From Candidatus Hodarchaeota archaeon (GTDB lineage Archaea; Asgardarchaeota; Heimdallarchaeia; Hodarchaeales; YT1-039): a stretch of DNA of 19,654 nt. Position numbers and translations under genes: made by a program. Numbering within the stretch: the first letter of the stretch is position 1; each line of letters opens with the position of its first letter. Positions 3,593 to 17,343 of this stretch are shown here, piece by piece. Under the pieces are notes generated by a model, which saw only the letters and a list, made by a program, of their open reading frames with translations, made no database searches and was not told the origin of the DNA. The DNA lies in assembly GCA_016840025.1 (NCBI GenBank), contig JAEOTF010000454.1, positions 1 to 19,654 on the forward strand, read 5' to 3'.

Positions 3593-3877
3593 TCATTCAA
3601 CTTCGAATTCTCTGTGAATTATGCTGTAAGTTGATGGTCCATCTGCTATAACCCGATTTATACCACCAATATTCGCTCTACCGATGTACTTTCTGACAAG
3701 TTTCTTGATATAACGCTTACTTACTAATTCATCATCTGTATGAATAAGGATTGAATTGCCTTCTCTAACAACTTTTGTCTTTTCGGGGATTTTTTCTTTA
3801 ATAAAGTCTACCAGTTCATTAACGACCTCTTGTTCTGAAATTTCTGAAATTATAACTTCAAAGGTGGTTTTACTCAT
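3593..3877 (-). CDS. rpl22e: Ribosomal protein eL22 (L22e)
   Basis: A 94-residue protein matching the eukaryotic large-subunit protein eL22. The core SKRYIKKLVRKYIGRANI followed by NRVIADGPSTYSIIHREF aligns with the human pattern SKRYLKYLTKKYLKK...LRVVANSKESYELRYFQ. The N-terminal half keeps the beta strand/helix pattern (FEVIISEI, LVDFIKEKI) and the SILIHTDDE strand corresponding to the eukaryotic ITVTSE. It lacks the long acidic tail of animal and fungal proteins. eL22 is absent from most archaea but has been reported in Asgard lineages, so this gene is the strongest single taxonomic marker here. There is no Shine-Dalgarno sequence at the ATG; translation may be leaderless or from a short leader. 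Confidence 0.85.
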   Translation of the reverse strand: MSKTTFEVIISEISEQEVVNELVDFIKEKIPEKTKVVREGNSILIHTDDELVSKRYIKKLVRKYIGRANIGGINRVIADGPSTYSIIHREFEVE

Positions 3878-11611: not shown

Positions 11612-11719
11612 GGGCCGGTAGCTCAAGGGTCAATATCGCGATAATGATCCGGCAAAGCCTGGTAGAGCGCCTCCTTGGCATGGAGGAGGTCGAGGGTTCA
11701 AAGCCCTCCCGGTCCACCA
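11612..11719 (+). tRNA. tRNA-Ala (GGC) with a D-loop intron
   Basis: All arms can be drawn. The acceptor GGGCCGG (11612-11618) pairs with CCGGTCC (11709-11715), including G3:U70, the alanine identity pair. The D stem is GCTC/GAGC, the anticodon stem CCTCC/GGAGG with loop TTGGCAT (anticodon GGC, 11677-11679), and the T arm GAGGG-TTCAAAG-CCCTC. A73 and CCA (11717-11719) are encoded. Between the two D-stem strands lies an insertion of about 31 bases; removing it restores a normal AGCCTGGTA D-loop. It is likely transcribed alone. Confidence 0.9.
11625..11655 (+). other. Non-canonical tRNA intron in the D-loop
   Basis: An insertion of about 31 bases (boundaries ambiguous by one A) at the first D-loop position. 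It forms its own hairpin: GGGTCA (11627-11632 region) pairs with TGATCC, and TATCGCGATA makes a self-complementary tip. Archaeal tRNA introns outside position 37/38 are known and are cut by the splicing endonuclease at bulge-helix-bulge structures. Here I can only draw a relaxed form (GCT/AGC outer helix, 3- and 5-base internal loop, 6-bp inner helix), not a textbook motif. Confidence 0.7.
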
Positions 11720-16081: not shown

Positions 16082-16087
16082 AAAAAA
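16082..16087 (-). terminator. U-tract after the permuted 5S
   Basis: Six T on the minus strand, 13-18 bases past the last base of the terminal clamp. It fits archaeal U-tract termination and supports a short stand-alone 5S transcript. Confidence 0.5.
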
Positions 16088-16099
16088 TGCTTAAATTGC

Positions 16100-16250
16100 G
16101 CGTGATGCAGTTTCCGAGTTCGGAATGAGATCGGGTGTAACCTTGCTCCTTTGACCGCGTAAAGCGCAGCTTCCCCGTGTTCCCAAATTGGCTTCCGCAC
16201 AATAGTACTTACGGGAACGGAAGCAAGCTTAACTTTCGGCTGCATCACGC
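16100..16250 (-). rRNA. Circularly permuted 5S rRNA
   Basis: Read 5' to 3' on the minus strand, the native 3' domain comes first (16233-16165): GTTAAGCTTGC (loop B and helix II), then GTAAGTACTATTG...GGAAGCC...TTTGGGAAC (helices IV/V, with the archaeal AGUACU and UGGGAA landmarks), then GCTGCG (helix I 3' strand). A CUUUA loop (16164-16160) follows. Then comes the native 5' domain (16159-16112): CGCGGT (helix I 5' strand), GGAGCAAG (helix II), CCGATCTCATTCCGAACTCGG (helix III/loop C, the most conserved 5S segment). The native parts add up to about 117 nt, normal for 5S. New ends lie in loop B and are joined by a perfect 11-bp helix (16250-16240 with 16110-16100). Helices I, II and III all re-form from my hand alignment. 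Confidence 0.85.
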
Positions 16251-16270
16251 TGAAGCAGGCCTTTAATTTA

Positions 16271-16281
16271 TATCTTTTATA
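16271..16281 (-). promoter_or_regulatory. TATA-like box for the permuted 5S
   Basis: TATAAAAGATA on the minus strand (16281-16271). A TATA element centred near 16278 would start transcription around 16253, almost exactly at the first base of the 11-bp terminal clamp (16250). The 55-base gap also serves the divergent DHH gene on the plus strand. Confidence 0.45.
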
Positions 16282-16305
16282 ATCTTATTGAGGTGTACAT
16301 AATCA

Positions 16306-17343
16306 ATGAGAAGCTTTCAATTTCCTGAAAGAGTCCAGTCTTTTTTTGACTTAATCCATTATCAGTCCACAAAGAGTATACAATTGTGGTGCCATAAAAA
16401 TGCAGATATTGACAGTTTTGGAGCAGCGATAGGCTTATATCACCTTCTTAAAACGATGAAAAAGAGTCTTCAACTCTCTATTCACGTTGATTCCTGTTCT
16501 GTGGTTACTAAAGCGTTTATTGACGTTCTAGGGGTTTATATCAACCTTTCCAACTTTGAGAAATTACCTAAAAGCGATATGATTGTTGTTATTGATTTTT
16601 CTAATCCTGAAACGATTAATAGCTCTTGGAACTCTCTTTCTGGCTTTAAGGTGATAATTGACCACCATGAAGCGATTAAAAAACCCCCATTAACCGATGA
16701 ATGTGTTTGTGAAAGCGATTTTGTTGCGACGTGTGAAATAATAACTGCTTTGTATGTATATACTGGAATTCCAATCCCTCCACCCATAGCTAATTACCTT
16801 CTAGCAGGAATAATCTATGATTCACAAAGATTTAGATTGGGAGATAAAGATTTATTCTCTTCTACAAACGTTTTATTGAGAAATGGGGGAGATTATCAGT
16901 TAATAATTAAAACATTAGAACGACCTCGCCCTTTATCTGAAAGAATTGCAAGAATTAAGGCTGCACAACGAATGAAGAAAGTACGAATCAATGGGGTTGT
17001 TCTGCTTTTCTCCTACGTACGTTCTTTTGAGGCATCTGCAGCCCGAGCGTTACTAAATCTAGGCGGAGACATCGCTTTAGTAGTTTCAGAGCGCATAGAT
17101 GAAACTCGTATTAGCATAAGGGCATCTTTACGTATTGTTGAAAAAACTAAAATCAATATCTGTAATCAAATCTGTATCCCATTAGCAGAAAAATTTGGAG
17201 GCACTGGGGGAGGGCATGAAGGGGCAGGTGGAGTTAACCTCAAGAGAAAAATTGAATATGCCCAAATTTTAGACGCAGTCTTGAATATTATTTCAAATAT
17301 TAATACGTTAGTAGAACAAGACACTCCAGATTCAACAGAGTAG
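16306..17343 (+). CDS. DHH/DHHA1 phosphoesterase (NrnA/RecJ-like)
   Basis: A 345-residue Mn-dependent phosphoesterase of the DHH superfamily, likely acting on short oligoribonucleotides, pAp or similar nucleotide phosphodiesters; the exact substrate cannot be read from sequence. Catalytic motifs are complete: HKNADIDS (30-37), VVIDFSN (Asp97), IDHHE (Asp119-His121) and GIIYDSQRF (Asp172). The C-terminal DHHA1 substrate-binding motif is GGTGGGHEGAGG (298-309). The length matches NrnA-type proteins and not the longer RecJ. GAGGTG lies upstream of the ATG. It is divergent from the 5S gene with a very short shared upstream region, so a role in RNA turnover is plausible but only inferred. Confidence 0.8.
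   Translation: MRSFQFPERVQSFFDLIHYQSTKSIQLWCHKNADIDSFGAAIGLYHLLKTMKKSLQLSIHVDSCSVVTKAFIDVLGVYINLSNFEKLPKSDMIVVIDFSNPETINSSWNSLSGFKVIIDHHEAIKKPPLTDECVCESDFVATCEIITALYVYTGIPIPPPIANYLLAGIIYDSQRFRLGDKDLFSSTNVLLRNGGDYQLIIKTLERPRPLSERIARIKAAQRMKKVRINGVVLLFSYVRSFEASAARALLNLGGDIALVVSERIDETRISIRASLRIVEKTKINICNQICIPLAEKFGGTGGGHEGAGGVNLKRKIEYAQILDAVLNIISNINTLVEQDTPDSTE

What the first reader, a model, noticed from the sequence alone, without database searches (positions are those of the whole stretch)
16100..16250. Circularly permuted 5S rRNA gene
The two halves of a normal archaeal 5S rRNA are present, intact and in swapped order on the minus strand: 3' domain (16233-16165), CUUUA loop, 5' domain (16159-16112). 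Native ends are fused at helix I, and new ends open in loop B. Helix I (6 bp), helix II (GCAAG/CTTGC plus GGA/TCC around a bulge), helix III (CCGA/TCGG) and the IV/V arm can all still pair. The native parts total about 117 nt. Permuted 5S genes are, to my knowledge, described in some mitochondria, and Halococcus morrhuae has a 5S with a long insertion. I know of no described permuted chromosomal 5S in an archaeon, but I could not search.
Basis: partly seen in the sequence, partly recalled or inferred. Interest (0 to 1): 0.95.

Follow-up and report, generated by a model that had tools for sequence, protein, structure and literature searches.

The report
Permuted 5S ribosomal RNA gene
In this archaeal DNA, and in most of the 227 Asgard archaeal genomes searched (Asgard archaea are the closest known relatives of eukaryotes), the gene for a small ribosomal RNA (5S) has its two halves in swapped order, and its transcript is predicted to be cut and joined by the tRNA-splicing machinery into a circle that would restore the normal molecule, which likely explains why the 5S gene could not be found in some complete Asgard genomes.

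Summary
Window 16233-16112 (-) encodes both halves of an archaeal 5S rRNA in swapped order; helix I is closed by CUUUA and the new ends lie in loop B. The flanks form an 11-bp helix, then a 3-4-3 bulge-helix-bulge (BHB); cutting both bulges at the usual place and ligating would give exactly native CGGAA|GTTAAGC. Of 227 held Asgard genomes, 139 match a permuted-core model strongly and 64 have a conventional 5S; 5 have both, three of these by bacterial-looking genes. The outer helix has changes on both sides at 13 of 13 pairs in five sequences. Religation in silico raises the score against conventional Asgard 5S in 76 of 76 non-redundant genes. Two further breakpoints with BHB-like joints occur, and one conventional-order 5S carries a BHB-like insert at the main breakpoint. 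In 410 genomes of two other archaeal phyla no permuted gene was confirmed (41 had weak hits; the 13 examined were conventional). Best explanation: a permuted 5S gene whose RNA is spliced and likely circular. Expression, splicing and circularity are untested.

The parts
16262..16282 (-). TATA-like AT-rich stretch (TTATAAAAGATATAAATTAAA), a possible promoter
   Evidence: Read. Across 89 permuted loci with 60 nt upstream, TATA-like words are commonest about 25-36 nt before the outer helix (no background control was run).
16240..16250 (-). 5' strand of the outer helix (GCGTGATGCAG)
   Evidence: Pairs over 11 bp with 16110-16100. 13 of 13 pairs of this helix show changes on both sides among 5 sequences.
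16234..16239 (-). Leader element CCGA plus AA: CCGA forms the 4-bp centre of the BHB with 16117-16114. The predicted cut lies between 16234 and 16233.
   Evidence: CCG is invariant in the first five sequences.
16165..16233 (-). 3' half of 5S rRNA (loop B 3' side, helix II 3' strand, helices IV/V, helix I 3' strand)
   Evidence: Alignment with relatives; religation score.
16160..16164 (-). CUUUA loop that closes helix I where the native ends would be
   Evidence: In relatives 32 of 73 matched helix I segments contain UUCG (simple string count).
16112..16159 (-). 5' half of 5S rRNA (helix I 5' strand, helix II 5' strand, helix III with loop C). The predicted cut lies between 16112 and 16111.
   Evidence: Rfam 5S half-hit; alignment.
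16111..16113 (-). 3-nt AAA bulge of the BHB on the 3' strand; the predicted cut falls after its second base
16100..16110 (-). 3' strand of the outer helix (CTGCATCACGC)
16082..16087 (-). Run of six T, a possible transcription stop
   Evidence: Read; not tested.

Best explanation
This is a circularly permuted 5S rRNA gene whose transcript is predicted to fold its flanks into a bulge-helix-bulge, to be cut there by the tRNA-splicing endonuclease, and likely to be ligated into a circular 5S rRNA with the native sequence restored. The permutation itself is shown by the sequence and by relatives. The inferred steps are transcription, cleavage between 16234/16233 and between 16112/16111, ligation (probably by RtcB), and incorporation of the 122-nt circle into the ribosome. 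In the precursor, the leader CCGA would pair with the 3' strand of helix III. After excision the true 5' strand of helix III would take its place. The native ends would stay fused through the closed helix I.
For: (1) Five genes with the same breakpoint: 52 pairs, 91.7% of cells paired, 35 pairs with changes on both sides; 0 of 500 shuffles reach these values. (2) BHB geometry with a bulge 3' of the central helix on each strand, and a cut-and-join product equal to the native sequence. In 76 non-redundant genes the central 4 bp are complete in 53; with partner tails shuffled 1000 times the mean is 24.9 and the maximum 35. The outer helix run averages 6.2 against a shuffled mean of 1.0 and maximum of 1.7. 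(3) Many central-helix types occur: CCGA/TCGG, CGTG/CACG, CTGG/CCAG, CAGG/CCTG, ACAG/CTGT and others. (4) Religation in silico raises the score against an HMM of 28 conventional Asgard 5S in 76 of 76 (median 21.7 to 45.8 bits, span 48 to 112 positions; window 32.3 to 68.5). (5) Near-exclusive with a conventional 5S: 134 permuted only, 59 conventional only, 5 both, 29 neither, of 227. (6) Other breakpoints with their own BHB-like joints also give native-like sequence on joining; the score rises in 7 of 7 genes. (7) A conventional-order 5S with a BHB-like 23-nt insert at the main breakpoint (L292). (8) Splicing endonuclease in 226 of 227 and RtcB in 202 of 227 genomes. (9) The window has a tRNA-Ala with an insert in its D arm, so its genome probably splices such inserts.
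Against: There are no RNA data: cleavage, ligation and circularity are not observed. The inner helix of a strict BHB is absent, so the motif is of a relaxed kind. Pairing of at least 3/4 (66 of 76) does not exceed its shuffled maximum (68, mean 60.4), because leader and tail motifs are alike across genes; only the 4/4 count and the outer helix carry the signal. The 4th central pair is missing in 13 of 76 genes, and 10 of 76 have fewer than 3 in the two standard registers; 3 still do if mixed registers are allowed, and mixed registers would give a product one base off. One group (about 19 loci by my count, such as L228, L235, L248) mostly lacks the outer helix; by eye it has separate hairpins in leader and trailer instead. 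25 of 227 genomes show no RtcB at the cut-off used, including permuted ones (e.g. G054, G057, G058), so the ligase step is less certain there.
Confidence: 0.83

Rival explanations
1. A permuted 5S gene whose RNA is never joined: it would work as a linear permuted 5S with its ends in loop B, trimmed near the outer helix (as I would expect of the permuted mitochondrial 5S; recalled).
For: The 5S helices can form without joining. Permuted 5S is cited for mitochondria (PMC11528492 and PMC10085705, passages). E. coli is viable with only a permuted 5S whose native ends are linked and which is tethered into 23S rRNA (PMC7283268, abstract and passages).
Against: It does not explain the leader element that pairs with the 3' strand of helix III, the fixed 3-4-3 spacing, products that fit native sequence at three different breakpoints, or the conventional-order gene with a BHB-like insert at the same site.
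Confidence: 0.12
2. A 5S pseudogene or rearranged relic beside a normal working copy elsewhere.
For: The window's own genome is not held, so a second copy cannot be excluded there.
Against: Paired changes across 5 to 76 divergent genes. 134 of 139 genomes with a strong hit have no conventional 5S above cut-off, including the nearly single-contig genomes G174, G055, G053, G054, G012, G125 and G126.
Confidence: 0.02
3. An assembly or binning artefact.
For: Many relatives are draft metagenome assemblies.
Against: The same arrangement recurs across the phylum with different flanks and contigs, including a 4.9 Mb single contig. It lies divergently beside a DHH-family gene both in the window and in G057.
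Confidence: 0.01
4. The circle forms by splicing but is then reopened at helix I to give a normal linear 5S, as permuted tRNAs are. (This shares the cut-and-join steps with the best explanation, so the odds overlap.)
For: Permuted tRNA transcripts are circularised and cleaved back to the standard form (PMC10085705, passage).
Against: The helix I cap is short and contains UUCG in 32 of 73 matched segments, and in the Njord-like group helix I is lengthened, as expected of a permanent closure. No trimming signal was looked for.
Confidence: 0.15

Closest known systems
Permuted SRP RNA gene of Thermoproteus tenax (PMC4731332, abstract and passages seen)
   Same: Permuted archaeal housekeeping RNA that had seemed missing; ends in a BHB of leader and trailer; splicing endonuclease cleaves it; the circle restores a functional loop.
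   Different: Different RNA (SRP, not ribosomal); described there in T. tenax and T. uzoniensis; shown by RNA-Seq and a cleavage assay, which are lacking here.
Permuted mitochondrial 5S rRNA of brown algae (Valach et al. 2014; seen only as cited in PMC11528492 and PMC10085705; the paper itself is not held; Rfam name mtPerm-5S recalled)
   Same: 5S rRNA with its two parts in swapped order.
   Different: Organelle genomes; no BHB known to me (recalled). No permuted-5S family of Rfam is listed for the window at E 5 or 10 (one same-clan overlap was left out) or at gathering scores in 16 permuted loci.
Archaeal 23S rRNA made circularly permuted or circular (Pyrococcus furiosus PMC7758197; PMC12918454; passages)
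   Same: Archaeal rRNA joined through a BHB by the splicing machinery.
   Different: There the gene is in normal order and the RNA is rearranged afterwards. [quoted passage not shown]
Circular RNAs read from conventional archaeal 5S genes (PMC12558985, passages)
   Same: Circular 5S-derived RNA in archaea (Halobacterium salinarum, RT-PCR confirmed; Sulfolobus).
   Different: The genes are conventional; ends vary and the authors suggest a link with degradation. No permuted gene and no BHB at the 5S is mentioned in the passages seen.
Circularly permuted tRNA genes (PMC10085705 passage; red-alga and archaeal cases recalled)
   Same: Swapped halves, circular intermediate; BHB joint (recalled).
   Different: The tRNA is cut back to linear form; here the mature form is probably the circle.

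Membership tests
5S rRNA | The five helices and the conserved loop motifs, in any strand order | tested here: met
   52-pair structure with both-sided changes; religated HMM score 68.5 bits for the window against a median of 89.5 for the conventional genes the HMM was built from.
5S rRNA (Rfam RF00001, conventional) | Score at or above the 38-bit cut-off as a linear gene | tested here: not met
   23 bits in the window; none of 16 permuted loci reached the cut-off. Expected of a permuted gene.
Circularly permuted RNA gene | 3' part encoded before 5' part, native ends joined | tested here: met
BHB-processed permuted RNA (permuted SRP RNA / tRNA kind) | Leader and trailer form a bulge-helix-bulge whose product is the native sequence | tested here: met
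   the strict inner helix is absent (relaxed motif).
BHB-processed permuted RNA (permuted SRP RNA / tRNA kind) | Cleavage by splicing endonuclease and ligation observed in RNA | not testable with these tools
   Only the presence of the enzymes in relatives was tested: PF01974 in 226 of 227, PF01139 in 202 of 227 genomes.
Mitochondrial permuted 5S (mtPerm-5S) | Match to that Rfam family | tested here: not met
   Not listed for the window or for 16 permuted loci at gathering scores. One same-clan overlap was left out of the table, so a weak overlapping match there is possible.

The most novel reading that the evidence does not exclude
In most Asgard archaea the ribosome carries a permanently circular 5S rRNA, made by the tRNA-splicing machinery from genes permuted at three or more different sites, and these genes descend from intron-containing 5S genes (one conventional-order gene with an intron-like insert at the same site survives).
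Probability: 0.6. Interest if true: 0.96.

Novelty: new variant of a known kind. Interest (0 to 1): 0.92.

Why it matters
5S rRNA is indispensable in cytoplasmic ribosomes (abstract of PMC7283268, listing) and is normally a simple linear RNA. A permuted gene shared by most searched genomes of a phylum, the one nearest to eukaryotes, would mean that an essential ribosomal RNA depends on splicing there. It would explain the 5S genes that could not be predicted in the circular Heimdallarchaeum genomes (PMC8813620, methods passage). It shows why the standard 5S model misses these genes, and it gives a natural series (conventional, conventional with a BHB-like insert, permuted at three sites) for how permuted RNA genes may arise.

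Tried and rejected
Considered and rejected: an assembly join, a pseudogene, and a tandem pair of normal 5S genes (no conventional copy above cut-off in 134 of 139 genomes with a strong hit). The leader CCGR as a mere relic of a duplicated 5S was rejected because it complements, rather than copies, the 3' strand of helix III (e.g. CAAG facing CTTG in L263; CGAG facing CTCG in L337).

My first automatic anchoring of the BHB was wrong for many loci and was replaced. Model R3 cross-matches conventional 5S: 7 of 300 and 34 of 110 non-Asgard genomes matched at E<=1e-6. All 17 non-Asgard loci fetched (7 of 7, the best 6, 4) overlap a conventional 5S; the other 28 genomes hit were not examined. Three of these conventional genes pass the E<=1e-8 line that I used within Asgard. 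Within Asgard I therefore looked at the sequences: 117 genomes also match the full permuted model R1, and the 22 others were read one by one and are permuted (L336 is cut by its contig end).

Rows dropped before counts: 5 R1 matches that overlap a conventional 5S (G091, G178, G186, G212, G216). 12 weak R3 matches. 11 of 131 model matches set aside as other types before the BHB count. 120 loci reduced to 114 for missing flanks and to 76 at 93% similarity. Two bacterial-looking conventional genes (L161, L163) were left out of the HMM of 28. Of the five genomes with both types, the conventional genes of G045, G114 and G138 look bacterial (a bacterial 23S end beside the one in G114 by Rfam; the other two by eye), G017's is the gene with the insert, and G034's hit overlaps its permuted gene. 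29 of 227 genomes show neither type.

Limits: most searches over many genomes used stricter filters. G174 (1,418,269 bp) fits the 1.418 Mbp closed Ca. Odinarchaeum yellowstonii genome (PMC9246712, passage) and G012 (3,326,783 bp) roughly fits the 3.32 Mbp Heimdallarchaeum genome (PMC8813620, passage), by size only. Other phyla were barely sampled (8 genomes of named archaea, plus 300 and 110).

Literature: searches (open-licence PMC only, no preprints) showed no report of a permuted 5S in an archaeon. For most of the listed papers I saw only the listing; passages were seen of PMC12918454, PMC10085705, PMC7758197, PMC8813620, PMC8997704, PMC12558985, PMC7812874, PMC9723677, PMC4731332, PMC7283268, PMC11528492, PMC9246712 and PMC11291895. 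PMC9723677 lists a 5S gene for two other Asgard genomes.

Full report
What is there. On the minus strand of the window the order is: TATA-like stretch (16282-16262), helix strand GCGTGATGCAG (16250-16240), CCGAAA, 5S 3' half from 16233, CUUUA (16164-16160), 5S 5' half to 16112, a bulge AAA (16113-16111), helix strand CTGCATCACGC (16110-16100), T6 (16087-16082). Rfam's 5S model finds only the 5' half, under its cut-off. A swapped-order pattern matches once, and in 0 of 200 shuffles. The window lies in no held genome. It is Asgard-like: it carries an L22e-like protein, an EF1-type exchange domain and an Arf-like GTPase, and its DHH-family neighbour finds relatives at up to about 40% identity in the Asgard phylum. 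The placement is an inference.

Relatives. Two are named Njordarchaeota, one 'Asgard group' and one 'Crenarchaeota'; the last lies in the same phylum as the others by the tool's grouping. In all four genomes the only 5S matches down to E=10 lie on the permuted gene, and 0 of 4 pass the cut-off. Five aligned genes (with the window) give 52 pairs, 35 with changes on both sides; the outer helix has 13 of 13 such pairs.

Distribution. Model R1 matches 122 of 227 genomes of the phylum at E<=0.01. Five of those matches overlap conventional genes, leaving 117. Conventional 5S above cut-off: 64 of 227. A model of the unbroken core (R3) matches 151 of 227 at E<=0.05, of which 139 at E<=1e-8; these are the 117 plus 22 that I read individually. 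The split is then 134 permuted only, 59 conventional only, 5 both, 29 neither, and it follows blocks of the genome list, so it is probably by clade. Seven nearly single-contig genomes (G174, G055, G053, G054, G012, G125, G126) are permuted with no conventional copy above cut-off; G091 and G185 are conventional. In 300 and 110 genomes of two other phyla, 7 and 34 had an R3 hit at E<=1e-6. The 13 loci examined from these, and 4 from other named archaea, all overlap a conventional 5S.

The joint. The two bulges lie 3' of a 4-bp central helix on each strand, as in archaeal BHB introns (strand geometry recalled; the 3-4-3 form and the symmetrical cuts are stated in PMC7758197, passage). Cutting after the second bulge base and joining gives TCGGAA|GTTAAGC, the native 5S. 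Across 120 anchored loci and 76 non-redundant genes the leader element pairs with the 3' strand of helix III. Complete 4/4 pairing occurs in 53 of 76 against at most 35 with shuffled partners, and the outer helix run is 6.2 against at most 1.7. Pairing of at least 3/4 (66 of 76) is not beyond its shuffled maximum (68) and is not used as evidence. Allowing mixed registers, 60 are complete (shuffled maximum 34). Re-joining in silico improves the match to conventional Asgard 5S in 76 of 76; the window goes from 32.3 bits over HMM positions 4-50 to 68.5 bits over 4-116, and the 122-nt circle is predicted to fold into the 5S helices, with helix III as CCGA/UCGG. Inference: the precursor is held in a BHB by a leader strand that mimics the 5' strand of helix III, the splicing endonuclease cuts, RtcB joins, and helix III then forms. 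The endonuclease family is found in 226 of 227 genomes, usually as two genes, and RtcB in 202 of 227.

More than one permutation. Six genomes (L295-L300) are opened in loop C instead. In five of them the leader GCG[CTGG]AA and trailer [CCGG]TCA-CGC again form a 3-4-3 joint whose product is CCCGGTC|CCATCC; L295 differs in sequence but follows the same scheme ([CTGG]/[CCAG]). G088 (L301) is opened on the 5' side of loop B with CCGA/TCGG and only a short outer helix. Joining raises the HMM score in 7 of 7. One gene, L292 in G017, is in conventional order but has a 23-nt insert exactly at the main breakpoint, with a CACG/CGTG centre (read). Removing it raises the score from 18.1 to 32.5 bits. G017 also holds permuted genes, so its bin may be mixed. 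This gene is what one would expect of the ancestor: a tandem pair of such genes, with the outer parts lost, leaves the permuted gene with the intron arms as leader and trailer (inference; an origin of permuted SRP RNA genes from BHB introns is called plausible in PMC4731332, passage).

Native ends. Helix I is capped by short loops; 32 of 73 matched segments contain UUCG, and helix I is lengthened in the Njord-like group. That favours a permanently closed helix I, hence a circle rather than re-linearised 5S; this is inference.

Known and new. BHB-joined permuted RNAs are known (SRP RNA, tRNA), permuted 5S is known in mitochondria, archaeal 23S can be circular, and circular reads from conventional 5S genes have been seen in other archaea (Closest known systems gives the calls). 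A permuted chromosomal 5S gene was not found in print by the searches listed under Tried and rejected. The Heimdallarchaeum paper states that 5S genes could not be predicted in its genomes. In 16 permuted loci no Rfam family reaches its cut-off at the 5S, so standard annotation would miss these genes.

What is not shown: transcription, cleavage, ligation, circularity and ribosomal use. The 29 genomes with neither type, the group with separate leader and trailer hairpins, and the loop C inserts of many loci remain unexplained.

Noticed in passing
window 11612-11719 (+): tRNA-Ala(GGC) whose D arm is interrupted by an extra hairpin (about 34 nt), probably a non-canonical intron; ARAGORN reported only 11646-11719.
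   Followed up: partly
L292 128-265 (-), genome G017: Conventional-order 5S with a 23-nt BHB-like insert at the same place as the permutation breakpoint; a possible 5S rRNA intron.
   Followed up: partly
L281-L284, L286, L287, L338, L340-L350 (most): Permuted 5S genes with an additional hairpin insert of roughly 20-30 nt in loop C, flanked by CCGA and TCGG-like strands; possibly a second intron. Simple removal by the 3-4-3 rule does not give exactly the usual loop C.
   Followed up: partly
L228, L229, L235, L237, L240, L248 and similar loci: A group of permuted 5S genes that mostly lacks the outer helix: by eye, leader and trailer each form their own hairpin, while the central pairs (CGGG or CAGG with CCTG) remain.
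   Followed up: no
L302 (genome G212): Conventional 5S with a long insertion after GTTAAA (39.7 bits, just above cut-off); another possible insert-bearing 5S.
   Followed up: no
window 16306-17343 (+) and G057:C80:3082-4044: A DHH-family phosphoesterase gene lies divergently beside the permuted 5S both in the window and in the distant genome G057.
   Followed up: partly
L224 (G058:C510:3664-3968): Two permuted 5S copies in tandem, with different leader and trailer helices.
   Followed up: no
window 3593-3877 (-): A short protein matching ribosomal protein L22e (E 5e-6), which I recall as mainly eukaryotic.
   Followed up: no
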